From positions 1 to 36,573 of the forward strand of contig JAFQKN010000025.1 of the NCBI GenBank assembly GCA_017396895.1: a DNA stretch of 36,573 bases, given 5' to 3'. The notes under the pieces are model-generated. The model saw only the letters and a list, made by a program, of their open reading frames with translations. It did not search any database and was not told the DNA's origin. This document shows positions 17,327-31,882 of the stretch, one piece after another. The translations under genes were made by a program, and so were the position numbers. This stretch comes from Clostridia bacterium (lineage in GTDB: Bacteria > Bacillota > Clostridia > Oscillospirales > Acutalibacteraceae). Every line of letters begins with the position of its first letter. Within the stretch, counting starts at the first letter, position 1.

Positions 17327-17332
17327 GTGAAT

Positions 17333-17373
17333 CTGTTTACCGATTTTAAGATTTTTTTGAAATTGGTAAACAG
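17333..17373 (+). terminator. Long hairpin after the TIM-barrel gene
   Basis: A 14-bp stem joins CTGTTTACCGATTT (17333-17346) to AAATTGGTAAACAG (17360-17373) with one G-T pair. The 13-nt loop holds a seven-T run, while the sequence after the stem is A-rich, not U-rich. It starts seven nt after the stop codon, so it may end the operon or protect its 3' end. Confidence 0.5.
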
Positions 17374-17445
17374 AAAAGACCGATATTGAAAAAAACGCAG
17401 ACCGTTTTTGGCTATTTGCACAAAAATACGGGCTGTTTTTCTGTA

Positions 17446-17474
17446 TTGAAAAATGAAAATCTTGGTAGTATAAT
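17446..17474 (+). promoter_or_regulatory. Sigma-A promoter of the secreted esterase gene
   Basis: TTGAAA (17446-17451) and TATAAT (17469-17474) are 17 nt apart, 29 nt upstream of the ATG at 17504. Confidence 0.8.
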
Positions 17475-17503
17475 TTTATTATGGAAAAAAGGAGGAATGA
17501 AAA

Positions 17504-18550: not shown

Positions 18551-18563
18551 TTTTTTGCAGAAA

Positions 18564-18599
18564 AAAAACAACCCGGTCACACAGACCGGGTTGTTTTTT
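18564..18599. terminator. Strong bidirectional terminator between convergent genes
   Basis: A 16-bp stem with a CAACCCGGTC/GACCGGGTTG core and A and T tracts on the outside spans 18564-18599 around a 5-nt ACACA loop. It ends the esterase gene on the plus strand. It also overlaps the stop codon of the last polysaccharide gene, so it can serve the minus-strand operon. Confidence 0.93.
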
Positions 18600-19671
18600 A
18601 TACCTTATAAAACTCTTTATACCACTGTGCAAATTTTCTCAAGCCTTCACGCAGCGGTGTGTTGGGCCGGAATCCCAGATCCTGTTCCAATGCGGTGGTA
18701 TCTGCATAGGTGATCGGAACATCGCCCGCCTGCATGGGAACCAATTCTTTGTGCGCTTCAAAATCATAATCTGACGGCAGAACCCCTGCGGCAATCAGTT
18801 CCTGTTGCAGGATATCCACAAAATCCAGAAGATTTTCGGGGCTGGAGTTGCCGATGTTATACACACGGTAAGGAGGATTCGGAAGACCGTCTGCACCCAA
18901 TTGTTTTTCGGGTGCGTTCTGCATGACCAGCCGCACACCTTTAACAATATCGTCCACGTATGTGAAGTCGCGTTTGCAATTGCCGAAATTGAAAATCTGA
19001 ATGGTTTCACCTTTGAGTAATTTGTTTGTGAAGCCGAAATATGCCATGTCAGGGCGGCCTGCCGGACCGTACACAGTGAAAAAGCGCAAGCCTGTGGAGG
19101 GGATATTATAGAGCTTGGAATAGGCATGGGCCAGCAGTTCATTGGATTTTTTCGTAGCCGCATACAGCGAAACGGGATTGTCGACCTTATCGTCAGTGGA
19201 ATAGGGAACTTTCGGATTGGATCCGTAAACACTGGAGCTGGATGCATACACAAGATGCTCAACGGGGTAATGGCGACAGGCTTCCAGAATGTTGTAAAAG
19301 CCTATGATATTGGATTCAATGTATACGTCGGGATTGGTTATGGAATAACGGACGCCTGCCTGTGCCGCGAGATTCACAACAACATCAAAGTGATAACGGT
19401 CAAAGCAAGTTTCAATGAGTTCCTTGTCAGCAATGTTACCTTTGATGAATGTCCATTGGGATGCAGGGTGCTGTGCGGCAATTTTTTCAATTTCCTGCAA
19501 GCGCCACTCCTTGATGGAGACATCGTAATAATCGTTGACACTGTCCAGACCGACAATGTGAACATTCTCTACAGACTGCAGAAGATCCGTTACAAGGTTG
19601 GATCCGATGAATCCTGCTGCACCTGTCACAAGAATGGTCTTGTTATTCAAATTCACATTGGGTGTCAGCAT
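18598..19671 (-). CDS. NAD-dependent epimerase, UDP-glucuronate 4-epimerase-like
   Basis: A 357-aa short-chain dehydrogenase/epimerase. The NAD loop is TGAAGFIGSN (residues about 16-25), followed by GLDSVNDYYD, a hallmark of UDP-glucuronate 4-epimerases (similar to 'D.lNdYYd'). Also present are NLAAQAGVRYSI, YASSSSVYG, the YAATKKSNE catalytic Tyr/Lys motif, and FFTVYGPAGRPDMA, again typical of the uronate group. It should interconvert UDP-glucuronate and UDP-galacturonate. Its ATG overlaps the end of the nucleotidyltransferase gene by 7 nt. It is the last gene of the polysaccharide operon and closes the uronate-activation trio. Specificity for the uronic acid is strong by motif but not proven. 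Confidence 0.88.
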   Translation of the reverse strand: MLTPNVNLNNKTILVTGAAGFIGSNLVTDLLQSVENVHIVGLDSVNDYYDVSIKEWRLQEIEKIAAQHPASQWTFIKGNIADKELIETCFDRYHFDVVVNLAAQAGVRYSITNPDVYIESNIIGFYNILEACRHYPVEHLVYASSSSVYGSNPKVPYSTDDKVDNPVSLYAATKKSNELLAHAYSKLYNIPSTGLRFFTVYGPAGRPDMAYFGFTNKLLKGETIQIFNFGNCKRDFTYVDDIVKGVRLVMQNAPEKQLGADGLPNPPYRVYNIGNSSPENLLDFVDILQQELIAAGVLPSDYDFEAHKELVPMQAGDVPITYADTTALEQDLGFRPNTPLREGLRKFAQWYKEFYKV

Positions 19672-20399
19672 ATCCCTTTGTACTCCTTTTGTACCTTTTC
19701 GTAACTTTCAAGATTGCCGATGTCATACCGTTTTCCCGGCATTTCCATGGCGTGTACGTCTGTCTGTTTGCACAGCCAAGCAATGTAACTTCCCGGTGCA
19801 TCCGTTCCGCAACCGCTTTCGATGCCTTTTTGCACCAATTTGGCATCTTCTTTGGTGTAGAAATAAAACGGCGGGCAGCACCAGTGTGTCGCCGGTGTGG
19901 GGGATTTTTCGGTCATATCGAGAATCTTATCGCTGTCATCAACGGTCACAACTCCGCATTTGAGCAATTTCTTTTCATCCGCTTCGTAATAACGCATGAT
20001 GCAGGATGTGTTTTTGCTCTTTGCATAGTTGACAAAAGTTGTCAAACTGAAATCAAGCACATTGTCGCCTGCAATGACCAGCATATCATCGTCAAGACCG
20101 AGTGTGTCAATGGCAAACTGAATGTCTTTAACTGCGCCGAGACGGGTTTCGTTTGATACTGTGCCGTCGTCAACGACTGTCACTTTCATCTGCTTGCTGT
20201 TTGCCCATTTTTCAAAATGAGGTGCGTACTTATGATTCGATATGACAACATATTCATCAACAATTCCTGCCGTATCAATGTCATCCACAAGCCAATCGAG
20301 GATGGTTTTGTTGCCGACGGTGAGTAAGGGTTTCGGGAAATTCTCGGTCAAAGGATATAAACGGGTGGCATAACCGGCCGCTAAAATCAGACATTTCAT
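19665..20399 (-). CDS. Sugar-1-phosphate nucleotidyltransferase
   Basis: A 244-aa protein with the N-terminal nucleotidyltransferase motif LILAAGYATRLYPLTENFPKP (about residues 4-24; the G-x-G-x-R loop has Tyr in place of the usual Gly) followed by LLTVGNKTI. An Asp in VIAGDNVLDF coordinates the metal. The C-terminal PGKRYDIGNLESY stretch resembles the RmlA/GalU-type 'W.DiGtp..Y' motif. It forms NDP-sugar from a sugar 1-phosphate. The start at 20399 has GGAG upstream and forms an ATGA overlap with the GHMP kinase stop codon. The likely job is to activate the uronate 1-phosphate made by that kinase to UDP-uronate. The nucleotide is not certain. Confidence 0.9.
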   Translation of the reverse strand: MKCLILAAGYATRLYPLTENFPKPLLTVGNKTILDWLVDDIDTAGIVDEYVVISNHKYAPHFEKWANSKQMKVTVVDDGTVSNETRLGAVKDIQFAIDTLGLDDDMLVIAGDNVLDFSLTTFVNYAKSKNTSCIMRYYEADEKKLLKCGVVTVDDSDKILDMTEKSPTPATHWCCPPFYFYTKEDAKLVQKGIESGCGTDAPGSYIAWLCKQTDVHAMEMPGKRYDIGNLESYEKVQKEYKGIC

Positions 20400-21568
20400 A
20401 ATTGAACTCCATCTGCACTTTCGCAAATATGAACGGAATATTTGCCTTCAAGATGCGGAAAAGCGCTGAGATACTCTTTGGTTACGGTTGCAATAATTTC
20501 TTGTTCATAAGCGGGATCAATCAGAGCCAGACAACAGCCCTTGAAACCTGCACCCGAAAAACGGCCGCCGTAAATGCCCTTGGTCTGCGTCATGATCTCA
20601 TACAGTTTGATCAGTTCCGGCGATCCGGTTTCCCAATTGTGAATGGAACTGTAACCGCTTTCAAAGGAAAGTTTGCCGAATGCTTCAATGTCCCCGTTGC
20701 GCCAGGCTTGGGCACCTTTCTGCACGCGGTCAAACTCGGTGTACCAGTGTTCAGCACGTTTTCTCCAGTTGTCGGGCAATCGGTCTTTGTACTGTTCGTA
20801 CACTTCACGCGGAACGTCACGCAGATTTGTGTCGGCAAATTTGCCGTATTCCATGCCTGCCAGCGCTTTGAGTGCGTAAGCGGCACTGCGGCATTCATCC
20901 ACACGCATATTGAACGCGGAGCCGACCAGACTGCGTTCAAGTCCGCTGAAGAAAATGGCAATTTTATACGGCTTCATATTCGCCTGCTGCGGAATCAGCT
21001 CGTATTCGCCGCTCTGCAGATCCATATACAGAAGATGGTCTTTTTTGCAGTACACTTCGCAGGACTGATCGAGCTTGCCGCAGGCAACACCGACATATTT
21101 GTTTTCGGCTTCCTGGGAAATGGTAATCAGTTCCTCGGGGGATAAAGTGATATGGTTCATCGTACAAAGGGCGGAAAGGAATGTGATGATTACCGCTGCA
21201 GAAGAAGAAAGACCTCCGATTGGGAGTTCCCCGTCGATCACGGCACACAGGCCGCGACGAAGCGGATAGCGTTCATTGAGCGCAATTGTGGCACCTCGAA
21301 GGTGATCTGCCCAATCGTTTTCCTTGCTCTTCGGAGTTGCTTCTACATGCCACTGGGCGCGTTTTTCGAATTGCAGGGATTGAATTTCTATAACACCGTT
21401 TTCTTTGGGGCCGTAGGCAATGTGGATACCTTTGTTAATGGCAAGCCCCGTAATTTTACCCAACTGATGGTCGCTATGTGCACCGATGGGACAAATTCGA
21501 TACGGGGTAAAAGCGGTATACATAGGAGGTTTTTTGTATTTTTGTTCAAAAACTTCAAATGCTTTCAT
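20396..21568 (-). CDS. GHMP kinase, galacturonokinase/glucuronokinase-like
   Basis: A 390-aa GHMP kinase. The N-terminal substrate motif reads PYRICPIGAHSDHQ (residues 22-35) where galactokinases have RVNLIGEHTDY. The YRICPxGAHxDHQ form is what I recall from plant galacturonokinase. The phosphate-binding loop is LPIGGLSSSAA (about 115-125) and the C-terminal motif is GGRFSGAGFKGCC. The enzyme should phosphorylate a free sugar, probably galacturonate or glucuronate, at C1 with ATP. AAAGGAG precedes the ATG. It starts a tightly overlapping trio with the nucleotidyltransferase and UDP-uronate epimerase. Plain galactokinase or a heptose kinase are the alternatives; neither fits the neighbours as well. 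Confidence 0.85.
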   Translation of the reverse strand: MKAFEVFEQKYKKPPMYTAFTPYRICPIGAHSDHQLGKITGLAINKGIHIAYGPKENGVIEIQSLQFEKRAQWHVEATPKSKENDWADHLRGATIALNERYPLRRGLCAVIDGELPIGGLSSSAAVIITFLSALCTMNHITLSPEELITISQEAENKYVGVACGKLDQSCEVYCKKDHLLYMDLQSGEYELIPQQANMKPYKIAIFFSGLERSLVGSAFNMRVDECRSAAYALKALAGMEYGKFADTNLRDVPREVYEQYKDRLPDNWRKRAEHWYTEFDRVQKGAQAWRNGDIEAFGKLSFESGYSSIHNWETGSPELIKLYEIMTQTKGIYGGRFSGAGFKGCCLALIDPAYEQEIIATVTKEYLSAFPHLEGKYSVHICESADGVQL

Positions 21569-21658: not shown

Positions 21659-22183
21659 TTATCCGAAGTCATATGGTCTGTTTATATAGTCTTGCGTTGC
21701 ATTGTCGCGATGTTTAATTATACAAGGATTGCCGAAAACTACAGAATGATCCGGTATGTCGCAATTTACATAACTGTTTGGTGCGATCAATACATCATTA
21801 CCGACTGTTATTTTTCCCACGATTGAGGCGTTGATGCCGATCCAAACATTGTTTCCTATGGTTGGTGCACCGGCGCGGGGACCACGGTTTTCCTGTCCGA
21901 TTGTCACACCTTTGTGCAAGTTACAGTTTGTGCCGATCGAAGCATTTTCATTGACGGTAATCCCATATGCATGGCCTATGTATAAACCACCGCCGATTTT
22001 GGTAGAACTGAATATTTCTATATGGTGTTTTTGTGCTGAATAGAAATAGAGTACCCTGTAAAATAAATTAAGGAGTTTACAGTCTGTATCCTGAGATTTC
22101 CGCAAAAGTTTTTGAAACAGCGGCATATGCTTTCCGGAATTTGCATATCTTGCAGAATCTTGCTTGAATAACGAATCTTTCAT
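21659..22183 (-). CDS. Serine-acetyltransferase-like hexapeptide O-acetyltransferase
   Basis: A 174-aa left-handed beta-helix acyltransferase of the CysE/WcaB type. The hexapeptide repeats run from about residue 60 to 150: IGGGLYIGHAYGITVNENA, IGTNCNLHKGVTIGQ, IGNNVWIGINASIVG and KITVGNDVLIAPNS. The HAYG and GHAYGI region provides the active-site His of the SAT branch. In a polysaccharide locus such enzymes acetylate a sugar hydroxyl or amine on the lipid-linked repeat unit, using acetyl-CoA in the cytosol. It is much shorter than true serine acetyltransferase, and no cysteine synthase is near, so a cysteine-biosynthesis role is unlikely. It follows the flippase gene by 16 nt. Confidence 0.88.
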   Translation of the reverse strand: MKDSLFKQDSARYANSGKHMPLFQKLLRKSQDTDCKLLNLFYRVLYFYSAQKHHIEIFSSTKIGGGLYIGHAYGITVNENASIGTNCNLHKGVTIGQENRGPRAGAPTIGNNVWIGINASIVGKITVGNDVLIAPNSYVNCDIPDHSVVFGNPCIIKHRDNATQDYINRPYDFG

Positions 22184-22199
22184 GGTATCTCCTGTATAC

Positions 22200-23714
22200 T
22201 TAATGTGTCATTTTTTTTGTTGCTTTTGCAAATACTGTCTTGAGATCATTTCTGTAAAAAATGCAGTTGATGATAATTAAAATAAACAGGGCAACAACAG
22301 CAACTTTGACCGCAAGTACGATCCAACTGAAATAATTGATCTCTCCAAGTGTAAAGAACGAAGGTAAAAGATGTGTAATCAAAAACAATATAATAACACA
22401 AACTGCATCAATAAGAAGATGTTTTATAAAATGATGAATCTTGCGGTATAAAATGTTTTTTGTCAAATAATGTGCCAGATATACGGTTCTGTATGCCATT
22501 GCAATCAATGTTCCGATTGCAACACCGATTAATCCGATTTTTAGGACCAAAATTACAGACACCGCAATATTGATGACAGCTTCAATGATGGCGCTCCACT
22601 GTGTTTGTTTGTAATGTCCTGCGGCAAGCACCATAATGTTATAAGGTAAGCGGATGCAGTAAACTGCATTTGCGAATGTAAACAAGTATGAAAATGCGGG
22701 AACGATATAGTTTGCATCTGTAATATCTGCAGTGTAGACTGAAACAAAAGGAACCAATAAAACGGCAGCAACGCCAAAAATATAAGTAACCACTGTGTGT
22801 AATAACCACTCAATAGAATGGAATGTCCGGTTGAGTTCTTCTGTTTCGTTGTTTGCAAGCATATTTCCAAGCATGGCTTGCATTCCGTTGGTTAGTGAGG
22901 TGATGATCTGTTTGATTCCGTTGAGTACCAATTGATAAACCGCATAAACGGAAACATTTTCAAGAGTGGATAAAAGTGTCAGAACAACTGTACCTGTGTT
23001 GCTGAGAACCACTGTTGCAATATGTTGAGCCAGGCCGTTCCATTTCTGTTTGATCGGCTCTTCGGTCAGAACCACATTCTTGTCAATGGCATATTTGTGC
23101 TTTGCATAAATACATACTGTAAGAGGTTGCGACATGAAAATGAGCGATGTTGCGAGTTTGACGATGTGGATGGACATGCCCGCTTTCATCAGAATCACGC
23201 ATACCACGGTATTGACGATCAGGGATGCACTGTGTACGATGTAGTGAATAAAACCCAGTTGATCGGCTGACAAAAGAAGTCGCCATGTCATGCCGAAATA
23301 ATATTGAGCAAAGGTGCTTATGGAAATAACAAAAATCAGCAGGAAAGTGTAAAGATAATCAAATTCCTCGATGGCTGAAAACGGATAGACAATCATCAGG
23401 ATCAGCGTATAGCCGACCAGAATGAAGGCGATCCTTTTGAAAAAACGATCGGAAGATTTGCAGATTTTGCTGATCTGATCTAAATTATTATCAGCCAAGG
23501 GCTTGTACAGTGAAGATTGTACAACGGCACCCACACCCATTTCACAAAGGGAAATGAATCCTAAAAACTGTGTAACAGAAGATACAAGACCATTGACGGA
23601 CGAACCGTATGTGGTCAATATGATTCTTGGCAGAATAAATCCGCAGATCAAAGCAACGAATTGATAGAGCAAAGAAGAGGCTGAATTGAATAGAAGTTTT
23701 TTCTGACGTGTCAT
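22200..23714 (-). CDS. Polysaccharide repeat-unit flippase, Wzx/RfbX type
   Basis: A 504-aa membrane protein with about 12-14 hydrophobic segments and the MATE/MOP-superfamily N-terminus FNSASSLLYQFVALICGF, followed by PRIILTTYGSSVNGLVSSVTQ, typical of Wzx proteins from Clostridial and Bacteroidal loci. It should translocate undecaprenyl-diphosphate-linked repeat units to the outer face for polymerisation by the EpsG-type Wzy (25740-26813). The ribosome binding site is weak (GGGGAT eight nt upstream). A TTGCC-tgttt-GGCAA dyad sits in the 56-nt gap before it. The coding sequence is AT-rich compared with the glycolytic genes, as is usual for specificity genes. Confidence 0.92.
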   Translation of the reverse strand: MTRQKKLLFNSASSLLYQFVALICGFILPRIILTTYGSSVNGLVSSVTQFLGFISLCEMGVGAVVQSSLYKPLADNNLDQISKICKSSDRFFKRIAFILVGYTLILMIVYPFSAIEEFDYLYTFLLIFVISISTFAQYYFGMTWRLLLSADQLGFIHYIVHSASLIVNTVVCVILMKAGMSIHIVKLATSLIFMSQPLTVCIYAKHKYAIDKNVVLTEEPIKQKWNGLAQHIATVVLSNTGTVVLTLLSTLENVSVYAVYQLVLNGIKQIITSLTNGMQAMLGNMLANNETEELNRTFHSIEWLLHTVVTYIFGVAAVLLVPFVSVYTADITDANYIVPAFSYLFTFANAVYCIRLPYNIMVLAAGHYKQTQWSAIIEAVINIAVSVILVLKIGLIGVAIGTLIAMAYRTVYLAHYLTKNILYRKIHHFIKHLLIDAVCVIILFLITHLLPSFFTLGEINYFSWIVLAVKVAVVALFILIIINCIFYRNDLKTVFAKATKKMTH

Positions 23715-23770: not shown

Positions 23771-24727
23771 TTATCGGTTCTGAAATTTGTTGATTTCCTG
23801 GTCTATAATTATGCCGTTTTCGATAATCAGAGAGTTTTGCAGAACCTCACCGATTTCTTCCGTCATCAATTCATTGATATACCGACCGATGATTTTTGAG
23901 TTGTTATATGAAAAGGTTTTATAAAAGAGGGAAGGTGTGTGATCGACTGCATAATGCATGATTCCGTCGACTATATAAGTGGGATCCGATATGGGGGTGG
24001 GGATGCATGTTTCGATACTGCCGCATCGGTCACAGCTGACATCGATGATCAGTGCTCCTTTTTTCATTCTTTTGAGATCATCCCTATAGATTATGTGATC
24101 TTTTCTTGTTACATCCCAAAGAATACAGTTGACGATAACATCATAATCAACAAATTCATCCTTGAAAAGACGTTCCTGACGGCGTGTGTATTGAATTACT
24201 TCCGCGCCGAGCATATTCAGAACACGAACGGCACCTCTTGCTGTATTGCCGTTACCTAAAACCGCAACGCGAAGGCCGTAAGGCAGTCTGCCGTAGCACT
24301 GAAATGCGTGCATGACCGCAGCTTCACCTGCCAGTTCATTATTGAACCAGAAAACATGTCTTTCTTTTTCAAACATATGCTCCCATGCATATGCGGTGAG
24401 TTTGCAGTTTACGATCTTATCCGTTATGTCGCGATTTTGTGTTGCGTGAACCCAACCAAAGATCGTTTGTCCTTCATGCAGGAAATCAAGGTAATCTCCG
24501 TCCCCGATTTTAGGATCGCAGATGATATCCTGCGCCAATACCTCCTCGTGTGAACAGATATGGCATCCGAATTGTTCATACTCTGCATCCGATATTCCTA
24601 AAACCTCTCCGAATCCTTTTTCAATATAAAGGTTTTCGGGGCAGATGATGCTTGAAATGTCCTCCGGTACGACGGCTCTTCTGTTTTCATTTTCTTTGTG
24701 GCTTACAGGAAATCCTACAGTCTTCAT
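23771..24727 (-). CDS. N5-(carboxyethyl)ornithine synthase-like opine dehydrogenase
   Basis: A 318-aa protein. The ATG at 24727 is chosen because GGAG lies six nt upstream and the protein then begins MKTVGFPVSHKENENRRAVV, the alanine dehydrogenase/CEOS opening. Other family landmarks are IICDPKIGDGDYL, FGWVHATQNRDITD, NNELAGEAAVMHAF, the NAD(P) loop VLGNGNTARG (about 156-165) and ISCDRCGSIET. CEOS of Lactococcus reductively joins pyruvate to the side-chain amine of ornithine or lysine. It lies between the ATP-grasp ligase and flippase genes of a polysaccharide operon, which is unusual and suggests that the opine is a building block of the polymer. Alanine dehydrogenase is unlikely given the length and motifs. 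Confidence 0.82.
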   Translation of the reverse strand: MKTVGFPVSHKENENRRAVVPEDISSIICPENLYIEKGFGEVLGISDAEYEQFGCHICSHEEVLAQDIICDPKIGDGDYLDFLHEGQTIFGWVHATQNRDITDKIVNCKLTAYAWEHMFEKERHVFWFNNELAGEAAVMHAFQCYGRLPYGLRVAVLGNGNTARGAVRVLNMLGAEVIQYTRRQERLFKDEFVDYDVIVNCILWDVTRKDHIIYRDDLKRMKKGALIIDVSCDRCGSIETCIPTPISDPTYIVDGIMHYAVDHTPSLFYKTFSYNNSKIIGRYINELMTEEIGEVLQNSLIIENGIIIDQEINKFQNR

Positions 24728-24770
24728 ACGGTTCTCCAATTCGTCGGCCTGCCTTGGCACGCATTAATTA

Positions 24771-25700
24771 TTATTCGTTATTTATCAAATTCAGATCAAT
24801 CAGACTGCCGAAATACGCATCCGTTTCGGGCAACAGATTGGCGTCGAAGCCGCTGTCGGGGAAAAATGTCAGTTCGCCGAAATAAATCTGATCGTTGCTC
24901 TGATACAGATCCACACGCACAAAAGGCATGCCTTCCGAAAGCTTTGCCGCAATGCGGAACATTTTATCCATGCAGGACGGCTTTGGTATTGTGAATCCTT
25001 CAGGGGCATTTTTGCCGCGGATATTAAGTCTCTTCAATTTCCAGTTTTCATCAAAGAAATAGAATTTTGTGTCACCGCTGGAACGTTCAAGGCAAACCAT
25101 CACACAATCAACTTTGCCATTGAAACAAAAGAATTTATAATCGGTAAAATCCGTGGCACCCGGGGTGTCAGACATGAACTTTTCACAAATGATTTTTCGG
25201 GGCACATTTTTGTAAGGCCATTCACGGCTTGGCAGATAATAATCCTGTGCAAGACCGCGATGCAATTCTTGCTTGACTTTTTGGATATCCATAGCAGATT
25301 TGTTTCTGCAGATATACATACCTACGCCGGAATTGTGGTTGCACTTGAGCACAAACTGATCGGGAAGGGCATCAAAATCAATTTCTTCGGGAGTATTCCA
25401 GACACCCAGAAGCGGAATGAGATATTCTTTGCCGAGTTTTTCGCGAATGTAATCACGCACAAGGTATTTATCGACAAGCATTGTGTATTCGGGCTTGCGG
25501 TTGTAAAGTTTCAGCCATTGCAGTTTTTCGTTGAAAGTTTTTGGAGCCGCTAAATCCAACTCCCTGCCCATTGTTGCTTTGAACTTTCTTTTGAGAAAAA
25601 CATCATCGGGCATATTCTTATAACCGAACAAGGTTGCGTTGATCAAGAAACGATAATCGCTGTCAAATAAGTATTTTATGCCTTTTTTTATTACGCTCAT
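24771..25700 (-). CDS. TupA-like ATP-grasp ligase
   Basis: A 309-aa protein with the TupA-like ATP-grasp pattern: TFNEKLQWLKLYNR (about 55-68), DKYLVRDYI, FVLKCNHNSG (nucleotide-binding lysine and loop), WPYKNVPRKIICEKFM, a YKFFCFNGKV strand and the C-terminal metal-site region FGELTFFPDSGFD. The family is named for TupA, needed for teichuronopeptide synthesis in alkaliphilic Bacillus, and occurs widely in capsule loci. ATP-grasp enzymes join a carboxylate to an amine, so an amide between a uronic acid and an amino compound is plausible. It is immediately upstream of the opine dehydrogenase in transcription order. Exact substrates are unknown. Confidence 0.85.
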   Translation of the reverse strand: MSVIKKGIKYLFDSDYRFLINATLFGYKNMPDDVFLKRKFKATMGRELDLAAPKTFNEKLQWLKLYNRKPEYTMLVDKYLVRDYIREKLGKEYLIPLLGVWNTPEEIDFDALPDQFVLKCNHNSGVGMYICRNKSAMDIQKVKQELHRGLAQDYYLPSREWPYKNVPRKIICEKFMSDTPGATDFTDYKFFCFNGKVDCVMVCLERSSGDTKFYFFDENWKLKRLNIRGKNAPEGFTIPKPSCMDKMFRIAAKLSEGMPFVRVDLYQSNDQIYFGELTFFPDSGFDANLLPETDAYFGSLIDLNLINNE

Positions 25701-25739: not shown

Positions 25740-26813
25740 TTATTGCCAAAACAATCGATACGGTGTTATGTAAATATTACCGTATGTAAAATAGACCGTA
25801 AATGCCAAAAATCCTGCAAGTACCATCCATTCAACGCCTTTTTTGTAGCGGTCTTTGAAACAACTGATGATGTCGGGAATTACGATGGTCAGGAATATTG
25901 TGAAATAGGGAACGATTCTTCCGAACAATCCCATGGAATAGCCTAAAGATTGCATCACAAGCGCAAGTGCCAAAGCGTTCAGTGCCATCGGGTTAATATT
26001 TGATGGTTGTCTTTTTTGCATAAAGATTGCCACAAAATAGAGCCCGTTCAAAAATATCAGCATCAGATAAGAACCGCCGGAAACATCGTATGTGCCGCCG
26101 ATGTATGTTGCGTATCGAGGAAACAGATTCGTCATCAGCAGGATGATCTGTCTTCCGAAAAGCAGGCTGATCAGTTGCGCCGGGATGATGATTTTAATCA
26201 TGAGGCTACTTTTGATTTTCGGCAGGAAATAAAGGGGGAGCGTGATAAGTGCTGTTGTGTGGAAAAGAGTTGCTGCGGCAACAATTAAAATGTATTTCAG
26301 GAGCTTTTTCTGTTCAATGAATTTTATGCCACACAAAATAATGGAAATGGCAATCATCTGACGGAATATGCCGAGACTGTATGCGAACAATCCCATTCCG
26401 AAGTAAACAAAAATGCTGACTGTGGGGGATTTTGAGTAGCAGAAAATTGTACGGAACAGCGGTATGTAAATAATACATGCAACCACAAACAAAAACACAG
26501 TATCAGGAAGATGCAAAAATGCACATATTTTTGTGAAAACAAAATATCCTGCTTCGAATGTAAACGGCTGAACAAGTTCGGCTGTCAGAATTTGTTTGCG
26601 AGGAAGTTGCGAATAGTATTCCAAAGCTTCCAGATATCTTACCGTATCGGCACCGACTGTATATGCACGCAGTCCTGCGAGGAGAATCAGTTCAGCACAA
26701 CAGACAATCAAATATTCTTTTTTGAGGAATTGTTTGGTGCCGTCCGCATTTTTTTTGAAGAAAAAGAATGATTCGATGAAAACCAACAGCAGATATCCGA
26801 TGTATACAACCAT
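25740..26813 (-). CDS. EpsG-family polysaccharide polymerase (Wzy type)
   Basis: A 357-aa membrane protein with about ten hydrophobic segments. The early motif GLRAYTVGADTVRYLEALEYY (about 47-67) is the EpsG-family signature ('GLR...vG.Dt..Y'). A FGMGLFAYSLGIFRQMIAISI segment around residues 140-160 is also typical. EpsG-like proteins polymerise lipid-linked repeat units on the outer face in Wzx/Wzy systems. The gene lies between a GT4 gene and the TupA-like ligase gene and pairs functionally with the flippase at 22200-23714. Sequence similarity in this family is low, so the call rests on topology, motif and context. Confidence 0.88.
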   Translation of the reverse strand: MVVYIGYLLLVFIESFFFFKKNADGTKQFLKKEYLIVCCAELILLAGLRAYTVGADTVRYLEALEYYSQLPRKQILTAELVQPFTFEAGYFVFTKICAFLHLPDTVFLFVVACIIYIPLFRTIFCYSKSPTVSIFVYFGMGLFAYSLGIFRQMIAISIILCGIKFIEQKKLLKYILIVAAATLFHTTALITLPLYFLPKIKSSLMIKIIIPAQLISLLFGRQIILLMTNLFPRYATYIGGTYDVSGGSYLMLIFLNGLYFVAIFMQKRQPSNINPMALNALALALVMQSLGYSMGLFGRIVPYFTIFLTIVIPDIISCFKDRYKKGVEWMVLAGFLAFTVYFTYGNIYITPYRLFWQ

Positions 26814-26840: not shown

Positions 26841-27938
26841 TTATTTTGAGAAAATAATGCGGACAAATTCATCAACCGCGCTTTGAATGTCGTATTTGTT
26901 GCGAATGAAGGCTTCTTTTGTGTCCTGCCTTGTTTTGTCGCATGAGAGCAAAACTGCTTCTGCCCATTTTCCCGGATCCTGCAACGGAAGATAAGAAACA
27001 AGCCCCGTAATGTCGGCTTCGCGTGTGATTGTGTCTGCGATCACACAGGGCAAACCTGTTGCCTGTGCTTCAATAACGGTGTTCGGCATTCCTTCATACA
27101 ACGACGGAAAAACAAAAGCATCCATGGCAGAAAGCACCTTCGGTACATCGGTGCGGATGCCGGCACACACAACGGCATTCTGCAGGTTGAGTGCTTTTAT
27201 TTTTTCCTCGAACTGCGCTCTGAGCGGACCATTGCCGATAAGAAGCAGACGTGTGTTTGGATTTTTATCGTGGACACTTTTGAAAATGTCCGCCAGGAAC
27301 ATATGATTTTTTTGTTCAGCAAATCTGCCGACGTGTCCCAATACGATCACATCATCGTCAAAATTGAATTCACTGCGGATCTTTGTGCGTTCTTCGCTGT
27401 CAAAGTGAAAAACACCTAAATCCACAGCATTATGAAGAATGGAAACAGAACCGGATTCGTATGCAGCCTTTCCGAATGTGTATATGGCGGCAAGGTCGGA
27501 CGGTGCAACGGCAACATCAATGTATTTTTGGTAGAGAATCCGGCCGAGCGTATGTGCGATTTTTGATTTCAGAGAACCGCCGTCGCTTGCGTTGCTTGAG
27601 CGCGCACAGCAAACCCTTGCACCTGCTTTTTTTGCGATTTCAAGATCCATAAAGCCCATTGCGCTGGATGTGATACGAAGTACGTATTCATAGTGATTAT
27701 CGCGAACAACGGCAGCCAACTGCCGTTTGAATTCTTTGAGGTTGTCCGACTTGGACGGAATTCTGTAAATTTTTCCGCCCAATGAATTGATTTCATCTTC
27801 ATAGAAACATTTTTCGACGACATTGATGCAGAAGTCCATCTGATACCGAGTTCTGTCAATGTTTCTGTATATTTTCATCAAAAATGTTTCGGCTCCTCCG
27901 GCATTCATGCCGCTGAGAATACACAAGAGTCTTTTCAT
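26841..27938 (-). CDS. Glycosyltransferase family 4 (EpsF-like)
   Basis: A 365-aa GT-B glycosyltransferase. The N-terminal acceptor domain opens CILSGMNAGGAETFLMKIYR, a hallmark of EpsF-like GT4 enzymes. The C-terminal nucleotide-sugar domain shows ILGHVGRFAEQKNH (about 207-220), LLLIGNGPLR, DAFVFPSLYEGMPNTVIEAQATGLP (the E-x7-E donor motif) and a final helical tail. It adds one sugar to the lipid-linked repeat unit on the cytosolic side. A basic C-terminus suits peripheral membrane binding. The next gene downstream is the polymerase. Donor and linkage cannot be predicted. Confidence 0.93.
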   Translation of the reverse strand: MKRLLCILSGMNAGGAETFLMKIYRNIDRTRYQMDFCINVVEKCFYEDEINSLGGKIYRIPSKSDNLKEFKRQLAAVVRDNHYEYVLRITSSAMGFMDLEIAKKAGARVCCARSSNASDGGSLKSKIAHTLGRILYQKYIDVAVAPSDLAAIYTFGKAAYESGSVSILHNAVDLGVFHFDSEERTKIRSEFNFDDDVIVLGHVGRFAEQKNHMFLADIFKSVHDKNPNTRLLLIGNGPLRAQFEEKIKALNLQNAVVCAGIRTDVPKVLSAMDAFVFPSLYEGMPNTVIEAQATGLPCVIADTITREADITGLVSYLPLQDPGKWAEAVLLSCDKTRQDTKEAFIRNKYDIQSAVDEFVRIIFSK

Positions 27939-27987: not shown

Positions 27988-29031
27988 TCAGAAACGCGCA
28001 GTCATAATCTGAATAGCGGTAAGTGGGGCATATTCTTTTGCTTTTTTGATGCAGTTTGTTTTCATGGAAAGCAGGATCTGCGGATCTTCTGCAATCTGAA
28101 AATGAAGTGCATCCAGCTCCTCGGTATTGTCGAAAGTATATCCGATGCCGGTTATTCCGTCATCAATGACATCGGCATAACTTTCCCATTTTGCTGAAAT
28201 GACGGGTAAGCCTGCAGCATATGCATCGATCACGGTACCCGGAATTCCTTCGGTGTAAAAATGTGTCGGGAAGATCAGTGCAAAATAATGCCGGAGAACC
28301 TCTACGCTTTTGTCCATATCAACGCATCCGCAATAACGGACGTACGCAGGACAATTTTGCATCAGACTGTCGAACCATTCTTCCTGCGCAGAATCTATCT
28401 GACCGTATATATCCAGAGAAAAAGCAGCGCATCCCAATTGTGAGTTGATGTGTTCAACTGAACGGATGGCTGTTTCAATGCCTTTTTCCTTCATCACGCG
28501 GGAAAAGGTGCAAAGACGCAAGGGCTTTTCTTTTTCGTAAATGAGATCCTGTTCAGTGAGTGCTTTTAGATCTTTGCAATTTTTCATTACACAGATATTT
28601 GTGAATCCTTGCTTTTCCAATGCTCTGCACATGGTATTTGTTTCAACATAAATGTTATCAAAATGCTTGAGTATGCGAGCGAGCCATTTGTGTTGTGTCA
28701 GAAACTGCGGTAACCATCCGCCAATAACAGAATAGTGCAACTTTCTGTTTTTAAAAATGTGTTTCAGTAAAAAAAGCAACGGTGCGTAGACTCGTAAACC
28801 ATTGTGGGCAGGGAAAATCAGCACATTTTTACTGTTTTTTAAAGCATATAAAACCTGAAAAGGAGCTTTTAACAGATTTTTTATCCCACCGTGCGTATCA
28901 ATTGTCTGTACCTGATCTTGTCCAAGTTGTTGTTGCAGAGCACGAGTAATGATTTTGGTTTTGATTGTTTGACCATTCAGAAGGTTTTTACCATCTCCGT
29001 AATGGCCCAGTATGCACACTTTGGTTGTCAT
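27988..29031 (-). CDS. Glycosyltransferase family 4-like
   Basis: A 347-aa protein. The ATG at 29031 is preferred: it forms an ATGA overlap with the stop of the preceding GT2 gene, has AAGGTG upstream, and gives a start directly at the VCILGHYGDGKNLLNGQTIKT strand. GT-B features are LCTFSRVMKEKGIETAIRSV (about 177-196), a DIYGQID strand, YCGCVDMDKS and FPTHFYTEGIPGTVIDAYAAGLPVI, the last carrying the E-x7-D/E donor motif. It should add another sugar to the repeat unit in the cytosol. It differs clearly from the GT4 at 26841-27938, so the two are not a recent duplication. Confidence 0.9.
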   Translation of the reverse strand: MTTKVCILGHYGDGKNLLNGQTIKTKIITRALQQQLGQDQVQTIDTHGGIKNLLKAPFQVLYALKNSKNVLIFPAHNGLRVYAPLLFLLKHIFKNRKLHYSVIGGWLPQFLTQHKWLARILKHFDNIYVETNTMCRALEKQGFTNICVMKNCKDLKALTEQDLIYEKEKPLRLCTFSRVMKEKGIETAIRSVEHINSQLGCAAFSLDIYGQIDSAQEEWFDSLMQNCPAYVRYCGCVDMDKSVEVLRHYFALIFPTHFYTEGIPGTVIDAYAAGLPVISAKWESYADVIDDGITGIGYTFDNTEELDALHFQIAEDPQILLSMKTNCIKKAKEYAPLTAIQIMTARF

Positions 29032-29780
29032 TTGATTTTTAACACCTTTATCAAGCACCAGAATCCGATGTGGAAAAGTGAACGGAACACGCTCAGATGT
29101 TCGATGTCGCGGTACAGGATCCAGTGGTACTTGATCACTTTCAGTTTATTGCTTGAAATGGAGTTCTGGCGGATGCGGTATTTCATCAGCACGTCCGGCA
29201 TACCCCAGATGTATTCTTCCTTTTTCAGCATCTGCAGCCACAGGGCGTCATCGTTTCTTTTGCGAATGTCGGGAACTTCAAATTTGCCCATTTTTTCGAC
29301 ATTATATACAACGCTTGAGTTGCCGACGGGGCAGTCGAGCAAAAGGCGGTTGTAGTTTGTCTTTTCGACGGTTTTGATGACGCGGTGCAGTGAATTGCCG
29401 TCTTCGTCGATCTGCTCGTAAGCGGTGCAGGAGAAAGCATGACCGTTTTCTTCCATCCATTGGATCTGACGTTCCAGTTTTTCGGGGGTCCACAGGTCAT
29501 CGCTGTCAATGAAGGCCATGTAGGCTCCATTTGCCAGTTGCATGGCGGTGGTTCTTGCAACGGCGGCACCCGAATTCTTTTCCAACAGGTGGTAGCGAAT
29601 GCGGGGATCTGTTTTTATGTATTCCTCCACGATCTCCTTCGTGTTGTCGAGGGAGCAATCGTCAACGATGATCATTTCCCAGTTTTGATAAGTTTGTGCA
29701 CGGACGGAATCAATTGTTTCTGCAATGAATTTTGCACAGTTATATGTAGGCGTGATAATGGATACAAGTTTTTCAGTCAT
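29028..29780 (-). CDS. Glycosyltransferase family 2
   Basis: A 250-aa GT-A enzyme. The ATG at 29780 is chosen over an upstream in-frame codon because GAGG lies ten nt before it and the protein starts MTEKLVSIITPTYNCAKFI, the canonical GT2 opening. The DXD-type metal site is FIDSDDLW (about residues 90-97), preceded by MIIVDDCSLDNT, and the catalytic region includes a later NDDALWLQ segment. A hydrophobic C-terminal helix (HIGFWCLIKVLKI) likely holds it to the membrane. It overlaps the phosphoglycosyl transferase gene by 8 nt and the next GT gene by 4 nt, so translation is coupled. It probably adds the second sugar of the repeat unit. Confidence 0.94.
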   Translation of the reverse strand: MTEKLVSIITPTYNCAKFIAETIDSVRAQTYQNWEMIIVDDCSLDNTKEIVEEYIKTDPRIRYHLLEKNSGAAVARTTAMQLANGAYMAFIDSDDLWTPEKLERQIQWMEENGHAFSCTAYEQIDEDGNSLHRVIKTVEKTNYNRLLLDCPVGNSSVVYNVEKMGKFEVPDIRKRNDDALWLQMLKKEEYIWGMPDVLMKYRIRQNSISSNKLKVIKYHWILYRDIEHLSVFRSLFHIGFWCLIKVLKIK

Positions 29781-30534
29781 TATTATTGTCCTCACTGCAA
29801 TGTGCCGAAGAATCTGTGATTTTAATTTCTTCGAGTTCACCTTTGTATTCTTTTCCCAATATTGCAAAGGCTGTCATGAAAATAGTTTTTATGTCAGTCC
29901 AAAAACTGAACTGTTCAATGGATTTGAGGTTGTAATACATTTTTGCGGGCAGGATTTCTTCCACGTAGACCTTGTCGGGGTCCTCTGCGCCGTCAAGCAG
30001 TTTGGCTTCGTCCTTGTAGTAAATGCTTGCAAGGCTTGTGACGCCTGCGGGCAGTAACAGCGTGGCCATCATTTCGGGGGTGTACTGTTCAACATATTTG
30101 GTAGCTTCCGGGCGCACACCGACTAAAGTGACGTTTCCCTGTACAACATCAATGAGCTGTGCGATCTCATCCAGACGACAATCGCGGATGATCTTGCCCA
30201 CGCGGGTGATGCGGCTGTCGTTGTTGACGGTGACTTGTGAACCTTTGTCGGCATTCTGTACCATGGAACGGAATTTGTGGATCCGAAAACGCTTTCCGTA
30301 CTGCGTTACACGCTCCTGACGGTAGAAAACAGGACCGGGCGAATCTGCCTTGATCGCGATTGCCAAAACCAAATAAACAGGTGACAACACGACAAGTGCG
30401 CAAGCGGAGGCCACAACATCAAAGGCACGTTTAAGGATCAATTCGTTTTTCTTTGTTTTGAGAATGTCATAATATTTTCTGACTTCTTCGGTTTGCATTT
30501 CCGCCGGAAGTTGTTCCCATGGTATGATCTTCAC
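29773..30534 (-). CDS. Initiating undecaprenyl-phosphate sugar phosphotransferase (bacterial sugar transferase)
   Basis: A 253-aa monotopic phosphoglycosyl transferase of the WcaJ/EpsL/PglC group. It starts at GTG 30534, directly after the DegT stop, with GGAG nine nt upstream. The N-terminal re-entrant hydrophobic helix is AFDVVASACALVVLSPVYLV (about 40-60). Then come DSPGPVFYRQERV, the catalytic HKFRSM motif, CRLDEIAQLIDVVQGN and LVGVRPE (usually VGPRPE). It moves a sugar phosphate onto undecaprenyl phosphate on the cytosolic face to begin repeat-unit synthesis. Being directly coupled to a DegT aminotransferase suggests that the first sugar is an amino sugar. There is a C-terminal extension of about 50 residues with a hydrophobic stretch. 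Confidence 0.94.
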   Translation of the reverse strand: MKIIPWEQLPAEMQTEEVRKYYDILKTKKNELILKRAFDVVASACALVVLSPVYLVLAIAIKADSPGPVFYRQERVTQYGKRFRIHKFRSMVQNADKGSQVTVNNDSRITRVGKIIRDCRLDEIAQLIDVVQGNVTLVGVRPEATKYVEQYTPEMMATLLLPAGVTSLASIYYKDEAKLLDGAEDPDKVYVEEILPAKMYYNLKSIEQFSFWTDIKTIFMTAFAILGKEYKGELEEIKITDSSAHCSEDNNND

Positions 30535-31752
30535 TCAAATGTACTCCTTCACGATTTCTGCATAGTTTTCGATCACATACTCCACGTCTTCATCTGTCAG
30601 GCAGGTGTGCAGAGGTAAGGTGATCTCATTCACAAAATGATTGTAAGCGTTGGGATAATCTGCGATATCGAAACCGAGATTTTTATATGCCGTATGCATC
30701 GGCAGGGGTTTGTAATGGACATTGCAGGCGATGCCGCGTTCTGCCATTTTTACGATGATCTCGTTGCGCTGTTCATCGGTGATGCCGGGAATGCGCGTCA
30801 GATACAAATGTCCGGACGACTGCCATGTATCGGTGTAATGGGGAAGCACTCGGATGCCCAAGGGTTTGAATGCCGCATCGTAGCGTTCTATGATCTGTTT
30901 TCTGCGTGCGAGCAGGCCGGGATAGCGTTCAAACTGTTTGAGACCGATTGCGGCTGTGACATCGGTCATGTTGCATTTATAATACGTGCCGACGATGTCA
31001 TATTCCCATGAGCCGAGTTTGGTTTTTGCAAGTGCGTCTTTGGATTGACCGTGCAGGCTGAGCAATTGCAGTTTCTTGTAGATATCTTCATTGCTGACGC
31101 CGGGGATGGTGTTCCACGTCAGTGCGCCGCCTTCGGCTGTGGTGAAGTTTTTGACGGCATGGAAGCTGAAGCTTGAGAAATCTGCTACCGAGCCGATCAT
31201 TTTACCGTTGCGGCTGGCTCCGAATGCATGGGCGGTGTCTGCCATGATCGCGATTCTTCCCAATGCAGATTGCAAAGGACTGTTCGGCTTGAATAAATGT
31301 TTCTTTTTTTCTGCAATGGCAAACAGTCTGTCGTAGTCGCAGGGGATGCCTGCGATGTCGATCGGAATAATGGCCTTGGTTTTTTCGGTGACGGCTTCTT
31401 CCAAGGCTGCGTAGTCCATCTCAAGGCTGTCCGGTTGTGTGTCGATGAGCACGATCTTTGCGCCGACGTGTGCAATGACGGACGCGGAGGCCGTATAGGT
31501 GTATGCACAGGTGATAACTTCGTCGCCGGGACCGATTCCCATAACGTGCAGAGCCATTTCCGCACAGGCTGTCTGTGAATTCAGGCAAACGCACTTTTCA
31601 GTGCCGATCCATTCAGCAATGTTTTTTTCAAGTTGCTTTGTTCGCGGTCCGGTCGTGATCCATCCGGATTGAAGGGTTGCAACGACTTCGGCGATTTCAA
31701 GATCGCTGATGTCAGGTGGGCTGAATGGAATGTTTCTTCTGTTATCAAGCAT
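30535..31752 (-). CDS. DegT/DnrJ/EryC1/StrS sugar aminotransferase
   Basis: A 405-aa PLP-dependent aminotransferase. The N-terminal INFxPPxIxxxE-type motif reads IPFSPPDISDLEIAEV, then LQSGWITTGPRTKQLE, NSQTACAEMALHVMG and GDEVITCAYTYTASAS follow. The PLP-binding Lys 201 lies in FSFHAVKNFTTAEGGA, and the substrate-binding end shows HYKPLPMH. These enzymes transaminate nucleotide-linked 3- or 4-keto sugars, using glutamate. No 4,6-dehydratase is in the window, so the keto-sugar supplier must be elsewhere. It is the first gene of the polysaccharide operon, after a leader of about 95 nt; its ribosome binding site is weak (AAAGTG). Confidence 0.94.
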   Translation of the reverse strand: MLDNRRNIPFSPPDISDLEIAEVVATLQSGWITTGPRTKQLEKNIAEWIGTEKCVCLNSQTACAEMALHVMGIGPGDEVITCAYTYTASASVIAHVGAKIVLIDTQPDSLEMDYAALEEAVTEKTKAIIPIDIAGIPCDYDRLFAIAEKKKHLFKPNSPLQSALGRIAIMADTAHAFGASRNGKMIGSVADFSSFSFHAVKNFTTAEGGALTWNTIPGVSNEDIYKKLQLLSLHGQSKDALAKTKLGSWEYDIVGTYYKCNMTDVTAAIGLKQFERYPGLLARRKQIIERYDAAFKPLGIRVLPHYTDTWQSSGHLYLTRIPGITDEQRNEIIVKMAERGIACNVHYKPLPMHTAYKNLGFDIADYPNAYNHFVNEITLPLHTCLTDEDVEYVIENYAEIVKEYI

Positions 31753-31853: not shown

Positions 31854-31882
31854 ATTATACAGCACGCAAAGACTGATATCAA
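31854..31882 (-). promoter_or_regulatory. Main sigma-A promoter of the polysaccharide operon
   Basis: On the minus strand TTGATA (31877-31882) and TATAAT (31854-31859) are separated by 17 nt. The predicted leader is about 95 nt, very AT-rich, and holds the dyad CGCTTG-g-CAAGCG (31777-31789) and a second TATAAT at 31800-31805 with no good -35. The rest of 31883-31971 has no gene; an A/T-rich TGCAAAAA/TTTTTGCA-type repeat near 31911-31935 may end the upstream lipoprotein transcript. Confidence 0.8.

What the first reader, a model, noticed from the sequence alone, without database searches (positions are those of the whole stretch)
23771..25700. Opine dehydrogenase next to a TupA-like ATP-grasp ligase: a possible opine-amidated uronic acid polysaccharide
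Seen: within a Wzx/Wzy operon, a CEOS-like N-(carboxyethyl) amino acid synthase gene directly follows a TupA-like ATP-grasp gene, and the same operon makes UDP-uronate precursors. Known: TupA is required for teichuronopeptide, a polymer joining uronic acid and amino acids, and some Proteus and Providencia O-antigens carry N-(1-carboxyethyl)lysine amide-linked to uronic acid. Inference: the dehydrogenase makes an N-carboxyethyl ornithine or lysine and the ATP-grasp enzyme couples its amine to the uronic carboxyl. I know of no described Clostridial system of this kind.
Basis: partly seen in the sequence, partly recalled or inferred. Interest (0 to 1): 0.85.

Follow-up and report, generated by a model that had tools for sequence, protein, structure and literature searches.

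The report
Opine-tagging gene pair for surface polysaccharides
In this bacterium's surface-polysaccharide operon a gene resembling an opine synthase sits directly behind a TupA-type ligase gene, a pairing that recurs in 44 of 80 related loci, and the two enzymes are predicted to build an unusual amino acid and attach it to an acidic sugar of the cell coat.

Summary
The CEOS-like gene (likely ATG 24727) lies 43 bp behind a TupA-family ATP-grasp gene in a 13-gene polysaccharide operon. TupA is within 300 bp on the same strand in 44 of 80 CEOS loci (29 Bacillota, 13 Bacteroidota, 2 unplaced). In an even draw of 118 class genomes CEOS occurs in 2 and abuts TupA in both; TupA has 29 matches. TupA proteins beside CEOS carry Asp286 in 42 of 44, against 2 of 24 without CEOS, but too few independent pairs exist for significance. 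E. coli plasmids pair a CEOS relative with a different ATP-grasp family, plus epimerase and UDP-glucose dehydrogenase. Others have shown TupA-type amidation of glucuronic acid in Campylobacter (PMC11800379, passages). CEOS catalytic residues are conserved. Not shown: the amine, the uronic acid, the linkage, any activity. In 28 of 80 CEOS loci no TupA or ATPgrasp_ST is adjacent and no TupA lies within 4 kb. A new variant of a known kind.

The parts
24771..25700 (-). TupA-type ATP-grasp ligase, 309 aa; predicted uronate:amine amide ligase
23771..24727 (-). CEOS-like N-(1-carboxyethyl) amino acid synthase (AlaDH/PNT superfamily); likely start ATG 24727
   Evidence: PF01262/PF05222; homologs start here; R27, K84, H105, D244 conserved with Lactococcus CEOS and AlaDH; model matches AlaDH
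30535..31752 (-). DegT-family sugar aminotransferase
   Evidence: PF01041 E 8.5e-90
29773..30534 (-). initiating sugar-phosphate transferase (PglC type)
   Evidence: PF02397 E 2.5e-53
29028..29867 (-). GT2 glycosyltransferase
   Evidence: PF00535 E 1.1e-43
27988..29058 (-). GT4 glycosyltransferase
   Evidence: PF13692 E 1.1e-13
26841..27938 (-). GT4 glycosyltransferase
   Evidence: PF13692 E 1.4e-27
25740..26813 (-). EpsG-family polymerase (Wzy)
   Evidence: PF14897 E 3.6e-48
22200..23714 (-). probable Wzx-type flippase, 504 aa
   Evidence: no Pfam match; 9 hydrophobic segments; relatives in 11 of the loci searched
21659..22183 (-). hexapeptide acyltransferase
   Evidence: PF00132 E 5.1e-11
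20396..21568 (-). GHMP kinase of the galactokinase family; predicted uronate kinase
   Evidence: galactokinase model 208.1 bits, below cut-off 226.65; relatives found with the SDR in L023 and L051, where UDP-glucose dehydrogenase was not found
19665..20426 (-). sugar-1-phosphate nucleotidyltransferase
   Evidence: PF00483 E 4.1e-28
18598..19671 (-). SDR, probable UDP-glucuronate/galacturonate 4-epimerase
   Evidence: PF01370 E 2.9e-55; close relatives abut UDP-glucose dehydrogenase in other loci; no curated model names it
31854..31882 (-). promoter-like site before the operon (TTGATA-17-TATAAT, 11 of 12)
   Evidence: 42 such sites in the region against 29.7 in shuffles
18569..18588 (-). terminator-like hairpin with T run after the operon
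   Evidence: 22 such sites in the region against 19.9 in shuffles

Best explanation
The window's minus-strand polysaccharide operon carries a CEOS-like dehydrogenase gene directly behind a TupA-type ATP-grasp ligase gene, and the pair is predicted to make an N-(1-carboxyethyl) amino acid (likely of lysine or ornithine, from pyruvate and NADPH) and to join its alpha-amine as an amide to the carboxyl group of a uronic acid in the polymer (likely galacturonic or glucuronic acid). Shown by sequence: the two genes, their conserved catalytic residues, their recurrent adjacency in two phyla, their place among glycosyltransferase, probable flippase and polymerase genes, and a ligase signature (Asp286, Met201) that goes with CEOS. 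Inferred: (1) CEOS condenses pyruvate with the side-chain amine and reduces the imine, leaving the alpha-amine free; (2) the operon's kinase, nucleotidyltransferase and SDR supply UDP-GalA/GlcA; (3) TupA activates the uronic carboxyl with ATP as an acyl phosphate and the opine amine attacks, with Asp286 near the amine site; (4) the amidated repeat unit is flipped and polymerised by Wzx and EpsG. Whether amidation precedes carboxyethylation is open.
For: Adjacency: TupA within 300 bp on the same strand in 44 of 80 CEOS loci (33 upstream, 11 downstream); 43 of the 44 gaps between matched stretches are -25 to 47 bp. Even draw of 118 class genomes: CEOS in 2, beside TupA in 2 of 2; TupA 29 matches in 18 genomes. 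Ligase lineage: a branch with SH-aLRT 100 holds 39 TupA rows, 33 CEOS-adjacent, 5 from CEOS loci, 1 control of 24. Signature: Asp286 42 of 44 against 2 of 24, Met201 41 of 44 against 2 of 24; in L019, L034 and L051 the adjacent copy has Asp286 and the second copy does not. Other ligases: ATPgrasp_ST beside CEOS in 8 loci, 4 of them without adjacent TupA (Pfam for L013, L061, L078; L008 by my own profile only); a third ATP-grasp family beside CEOS on E. coli plasmids with epimerase and UDP-glucose dehydrogenase. Uronate: SDR and/or UDP-glucose dehydrogenase in 23 of 44 pair loci; SDR relatives abut that dehydrogenase. Enzymes: CEOS R27, K84, H105, D244 align with AlaDH pyruvate and catalytic residues and are in Lactococcus CEOS (residue roles recalled); Y-x-R-R after the second strand instead of Asp fits NADPH (inference). 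Precedent: Cj1438C and its relative HS19.11C amidate GlcA (PMC11800379, PMC13276843, passages). Known product type: galacturonoyl amide of N-epsilon-(1-carboxyethyl)-L-lysine in Providencia rustigianii O14 (PMC10609480, passages); a 75% relative of the E. coli ATP-grasp partner is in P. rustigianii.
Against: 28 of 80 CEOS loci have neither TupA nor ATPgrasp_ST adjacent nor TupA within about 4 kb; L037, L041 and L044 among them have an ATPgrasp_ST match 1.0-2.5 kb away and some contigs are short, but 11 (Carnobacteriaceae, Clostridium, Haloplasma) matched none of the other 13 window operon genes tested, so CEOS can act alone. The window CEOS is 31-34% identical to Lactococcus CEOS; the amine cannot be read from sequence. 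Uronate genes were not seen in 21 of 44 pair loci. No UDP-glucose dehydrogenase was found in the window, and the genome's only PF03721 match is nearer to UDP-GlcNAc dehydrogenase TviB. The SDR's best solved relative, 5u4q, is deposited as a dTDP-glucose dehydratase. Two CEOS-adjacent TupA (L055, L062) lack Asp286, two controls (L118, L120) have it. The tree offers only 2 supported independent pairs; with all CEOS-locus TupA counted as linked, 4 pairs, mostly without a difference in Asp286. The CEOS match in G042, one of the two in the class draw, has one TAA counted inside it. The P. rustigianii CEOS gene and that strain's serotype were not checked.
Confidence: 0.62

Rival explanations
1. The ligase works the other way round: TupA activates a carboxyl of the opine and couples it to the amino group of an amino sugar (made by the operon's DegT aminotransferase), giving an N-acylated amino sugar.
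For: A DegT aminotransferase heads the operon; six loci carry a close relative of it (E <= 1e-60), all six with TupA beside CEOS. Alanopine amides of amino sugars exist in enterobacterial O-antigens (recalled).
Against: Close DegT relatives occur in 6 of 44 pair loci, uronate genes in 23 of 44. The E. coli plasmid stretches have uronate genes and no annotated aminotransferase. The studied TupA-type domains use the uronate carboxyl (PMC11800379, PMC13276843, passages).
Confidence: 0.12
2. The pair modifies uronic acid, but CEOS acts on a different amine (for example ethanolamine phosphate, another amino acid, or an already amide-linked lysine on the polymer), so the free lysine or ornithine opine is never made.
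For: N-[(R)-1-carboxyethyl]ethanolamine phosphate occurs in a Proteus O-antigen (PMC9630907, passages) and Cj1438C takes ethanolamine or serinol phosphate (PMC12409886, passages). The window CEOS is distant from Lactococcus CEOS.
Against: The known uronic-linked opine is a lysine derivative (PMC10609480, passages); a secondary amine without a free primary amine is a poor amide former (inference).
Confidence: 0.17
3. CEOS and TupA are independent decorations that merely travel together: CEOS makes a free opine for another use and TupA couples a different amine.
For: 28 of 80 CEOS loci have no TupA or ATPgrasp_ST adjacent and no TupA within about 4 kb; most TupA genes have no CEOS (27 of 29 matches).
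Against: Tight adjacency in 44 of 80 loci in both orders, the ligase lineage and the Asp286 association.
Confidence: 0.09

Closest known systems
TupA-type amidoligase domain Cj1438C, and its relative HS19.11C, of Campylobacter jejuni capsule synthesis
   Same: TupA-like ATP-grasp fold; in capsule loci; shown by others to form an amide at the C6 carboxyl of glucuronic acid with ATP (PMC11800379, PMC13276843, passages)
   Different: There the domain is fused to a GT2 glycosyltransferase and the amine is serinol or ethanolamine phosphate, later dephosphorylated; here the ligase is separate and paired with an opine-synthase-like gene
Lactococcus CEOS, N5-(carboxyethyl)ornithine synthase
   Same: Short AlaDH/PNT enzyme, same catalytic residues and a Y-x-R-[RK] after the second strand in the L. 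lactis row
   Different: 31-34% identity; not in a polysaccharide locus on the two plasmids viewed
Providencia rustigianii O14 O-antigen with N-epsilon-[(S)-1-carboxyethyl]-N-alpha-(D-galacturonoyl)-L-lysine
   Same: The chemistry predicted here is of this type (PMC10609480, passages)
   Different: Gram-negative LPS; the possible ligase there, a relative of the E. coli plasmid protein, belongs to another ATP-grasp family
Teichuronopeptide system of alkaliphilic Bacillus (tupA)
   Same: TupA family and amino-acid-bearing polyuronate (recalled)
   Different: That polymer carries polyglutamate (recalled); I did not look for CEOS there

Membership tests
TupA-like ATP-grasp (PF14305) | match above Pfam gathering score over the whole domain | tested here: met
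   212.6 bits against cut-off 25, profile 1-240 of 241
TupA-like ATP-grasp (PF14305) | ATP-grasp fold with intact ATP/Mg residues | tested here: met
TupA-like ATP-grasp (PF14305) | amide ligase activity on a uronic carboxyl | not testable with these tools
   shown for Cj1438C by others (PMC11800379, passages)
CEOS, N-(carboxyethyl) amino acid synthase | short AlaDH/PNT protein lacking the segment after strand 2 that AlaDH has | tested here: met
   alignment to AlaDH chains and to L. lactis CEOS
CEOS, N-(carboxyethyl) amino acid synthase | pyruvate-binding and catalytic R, K, H, D | tested here: met
   R27, K84, H105, D244 in all 8 rows of A2; roles recalled
CEOS, N-(carboxyethyl) amino acid synthase | forms N5-carboxyethylornithine or the lysine homolog with NADPH | not testable with these tools
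   needs purified enzyme
Alanine dehydrogenase | NCBIfam equivalog score | tested here: not met
   TIGR00518 91.7 bits against cut-off 391.85
Galactokinase (operon kinase) | NCBIfam equivalog score | tested here: not met
   TIGR00131 208.1 bits against 226.65; works like a GHMP sugar kinase, substrate unknown
UDP-glucuronate 4-epimerase (operon SDR) | activity on UDP-GlcA/GalA | tested here: inconclusive
   no curated model above cut-off; genomic neighbours point to uronate; best solved relative is 5u4q, deposited as dTDP-glucose 4,6-dehydratase
Teichuronopeptide system | polyglutamate synthesis genes with TupA | tested here: inconclusive
   no PGA_cap match in the 30 window ORFs scanned; other ORFs and the genome were not scanned for it

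The most novel reading that the evidence does not exclude
A mobile two-gene 'opine amidation' cassette decorates surface polyuronates across Bacillota and Bacteroidota: CEOS makes a carboxyethyl amino acid, a dedicated TupA lineage marked by Asp286 in the acceptor loop attaches it, and the ligase is modular, so that swapping its C-terminal half changes the amine (L018, L022). The result would be a polymer whose side chains carry both plus and minus charges, and in this genome the uronate would come from a salvage kinase route instead of UDP-glucose dehydrogenase.
Probability: 0.35. Interest if true: 0.84.

Novelty: new variant of a known kind. Interest (0 to 1): 0.72.

Why it matters
N-carboxyethyl amino acids amide-linked to uronic acids have been found chemically in a few enterobacterial O-antigens. 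In the listings of my library searches and the passages I opened I saw no paper that names the genes that make and attach them; papers of subscription journals are mostly not held, so this is not proof of absence. The pair gives a concrete two-enzyme hypothesis, a candidate sequence signature by which such polymers could be predicted from genomes, and named isolates (Acetanaerobacterium elongatum, Barnesiella sp. An22) in which it could be checked by NMR. If right, it extends opine chemistry to the coats of many gut anaerobes.

Tried and rejected
Alanine dehydrogenase or transhydrogenase as the identity of the dehydrogenase: rejected (one search scores far below cut-offs; short form). The minus-strand 423-aa ORF 17309-18580: treated as spurious, since the overlapping plus-strand ORF 17504-18550 matches Abhydrolase_2. 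Independent-pairs test of Asp286 against CEOS: only 2 supported pairs (5 with unsupported branches), cannot reach significance; with all CEOS-locus TupA counted as linked, 4 supported pairs (8 in all), in most of which Asp286 does not differ. PDB sequence search of the E. coli partner gave only E of about 0.5 to PurD/PurK-type enzymes, and Pfam no match; its ATP-grasp nature rests on names and Pfam domains of its relatives and RefSeq annotation. No solved relative of TupA by sequence. Searches for Providencia/Proteus gene-cluster papers returned reviews with structures; I saw no gene assignments in the passages opened. In the TupA control stretches (about 2-4 kb each, plus L091) neither CEOS nor a match to the E. 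coli UDP-glucose dehydrogenase query was found, so these short stretches do not themselves show TupA with uronate genes. The search for related loci kept 80 of 109 confirmed relatives; only those 80 were examined. Of 29 TupA matches, 2 are the CEOS-adjacent ones and 3 were too short or weak, leaving 24 controls in the tree. L018 is counted in 44 of 80 but is not among the tree's 44 CEOS-adjacent rows (window plus 43), as its adjacent piece is short. My ATPgrasp_ST profile was built from four of the loci it then found (L013, L050, L061, L078). Controls come from the window's class only, whereas the CEOS-linked rows include Bacteroidota. In VIA-align the TupA model also matched other ATP-grasp enzymes such as carbamoyl phosphate synthetase and pyruvate carboxylase, so the fold does not fix the substrate.
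Full report
WHAT IS THERE. The window holds a minus-strand run of 13 genes from 31752 to 18598: DegT aminotransferase, PglC-type initiating transferase, GT2, two GT4, EpsG-type polymerase, TupA-type ligase, CEOS-like dehydrogenase, a 504-aa membrane protein, hexapeptide acyltransferase, GHMP kinase, nucleotidyltransferase and SDR. Gaps between neighbours are -95 to 90 bp. A promoter-like site (11 of 12) precedes it and a terminator-like hairpin follows it; both kinds of site are common by chance, so they are only consistent with one unit. The CEOS start is most likely ATG 24727, because the homologs begin there. The genome, G000, is 2.69 Mb in 194 contigs, 90% complete.

CONSERVATION OF THE PAIR. 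A scan of genome contigs gave 80 loci (of 109 confirmed; only 80 were kept). TupA lies within 300 bp on the same strand in 44 of 80, upstream in 33 and downstream in 11; 43 of the 44 gaps, measured between matched stretches, are -25 to 47 bp. By record title 29 of the 44 are Bacillota, 13 Bacteroidota and 2 unplaced. ATPgrasp_ST (PF14397) is adjacent in 8, 4 of them without adjacent TupA (Pfam; L008 by my own profile only). On the CEOS tree the TupA-adjacent label needs 20 changes (7 forced by supported branches) against a shuffled mean of 28.2, 0 of 500 as low, so the pairing has been gained or lost repeatedly. As a control, an even draw of 118 genomes of the class has this CEOS (E <= 1e-60) in 2 and TupA in 18, with 29 matches; both CEOS genes abut TupA. 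The second one, in G042, has a TAA counted inside the match; its locus has UDP-glucose-dehydrogenase-like, SDR (73% identity), CEOS, TupA, GT4 and PglC relatives within 15 kb. Of 79 genes flanking the pair in 43 of the 44 loci, the commonest Pfam families listed (25 of 52 shown) are flippases (9), Wzy_C (9), glycosyltransferases (8), epimerases (8) and PGA_cap (7).

A LIGASE SIGNATURE. On a TupA tree of 80 rows a branch with SH-aLRT 100 holds 33 CEOS-adjacent, 5 CEOS-locus and 1 of 24 control proteins; the tree is a quick one with a midpoint root. Asp286, in the segment after E276-x-T278 where Ddl enzymes hold the second substrate (recalled), is present in 42 of 44 CEOS-adjacent rows and 2 of 24 controls; Met201 in 41 of 44 and 2 of 24. 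In L019, L034 and L051 the copy beside CEOS has Asp286 and a second, distant copy does not; in L062 neither has it. Of 12 CEOS-locus TupA at a distance 5 have it (L006, L008, L014, L061, L078). Against this, the tree gives only 2 supported independent pairs, so shared descent may explain much of it. The difference lies in the C-terminal half: mean identity to the window is 59% for CEOS-adjacent and 38% for controls there, and 51% against 45% in the N-terminal half.

URONATE SUPPLY. SDR and/or UDP-glucose dehydrogenase genes were found in 23 of the 44 pair loci. Thirteen loci have a relative of the window SDR with at least 500 bits: it lies within 80 bp of UDP-glucose dehydrogenase in L015, L022, L024, L027, L029, L031 and L046 and farther from it in L026, L055 and L080; in L023 and L051 the locus has the GHMP kinase and nucleotidyltransferase instead, as in the window; L017 shows neither; none has both. 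No curated model names the SDR and its best solved relative is deposited as a dTDP-glucose dehydratase (5u4q), so the 4-epimerase reading rests on neighbours. The kinase is below the galactokinase cut-off. The only PF03721 gene found in G000 is nearest to the UDP-GlcNAc dehydrogenase TviB (481.5 bits, below its own cut-off of 592) beside a TviC-like epimerase and a second, CEOS-less TupA. I infer a salvage route to UDP-uronate for this operon; the missing 10% of the genome leaves room for error.

A SECOND FORM. Two E. coli plasmids carry a CEOS relative beside a protein with no Pfam match of its own; its relatives are in part named ATP-grasp, some with PF08443 or PF01071. The locus has WecA-type, flippase, EpsG, epimerase and UDP-glucose dehydrogenase genes (686.5 bits to a UDP-glucose dehydrogenase model whose cut-off is 757). 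Relatives of both proteins occur in Shewanella oncorhynchi, Salinivibrio costicola, Pseudoalteromonas sp. BDTF-M6 and Symbiopectobacterium purcellii on longest contigs of equal length, and in Providencia rettgeri and Vibrio cholerae. A 75% relative of the ligase is in Providencia rustigianii, the species in whose O14 antigen galacturonoyl-N-epsilon-carboxyethyl-lysine was found (PMC10609480, passages). I did not see the P. rustigianii CEOS, nor the strain's serotype. Of 5,426 E. coli genomes 5 have the pair, 2 on plasmids and 3 on chromosomes at 70.8% identity; in the one chromosome viewed, insertion sequences surround the pair.

MECHANISM AND LIMITS. Cj1438C (TupA-like fold) and its relative HS19.11C amidate the carboxyl of glucuronic acid with ATP (PMC11800379, PMC12409886, PMC13276843, passages). 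The predominant amino acid amide of uronic acids in Proteus is through the alpha-amine, lysine being commonest (PMC11989651, passages). A CEOS acting on the side-chain amine would leave that alpha-amine free. I therefore predict the sequence opine synthesis, amidation, flipping, polymerisation. Nothing here measures activity; amine, sugar and order are open, and in 28 of 80 CEOS loci no TupA or ATPgrasp_ST is adjacent and no TupA lies within about 4 kb.

VERDICT. I file it as a new variant of a known kind: TupA-type uronate amidation with an opine amine.

Noticed in passing
L018:8605-9990 and L022:8540-9913: TupA ORF has an Asp286-less C-terminal half followed in the same frame by a second, Asp286-type C-terminal half next to CEOS, as if the specificity half had been exchanged and the old one left behind; in L022 the CEOS frame is also split.
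   Followed up: partly
window 18598-21568: GHMP kinase, nucleotidyltransferase and SDR may be a salvage route to UDP-uronate replacing UDP-glucose dehydrogenase.
   Followed up: partly
L091:11092-14694: The same genome has a second TupA without CEOS beside TviB/TviC-like genes, with Wzy_C and UDP-GlcNAc 2-epimerase genes nearby.
   Followed up: partly
L063, L064, L069, L071, L072, L074-L077, L081, L082: CEOS relatives in Carnobacteriaceae, Clostridium and Haloplasma stand without any of the other window operon genes tested nearby; their role is open.
   Followed up: no
L009, L031, L034, L050: CEOS has TupA on one side and ATPgrasp_ST on the other, which suggests two successive ligations.
   Followed up: no
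L123:7546-8673 and pair-flanking genes: A CapA-like gene (judged from the sequence, not scanned) follows the CEOS-less TupA in L123; PGA_cap matches 7 of 79 pair-flanking genes.
   Followed up: no
L121:13962-18718: E. coli chromosomal copy of the ATP-grasp and CEOS pair among insertion sequences, with a short gene annotated as ATP-grasp fold amidoligase.
   Followed up: no
G042:C1:333885-334826: The CEOS match beside TupA is reported with one TAA inside it; not examined further.
   Followed up: no
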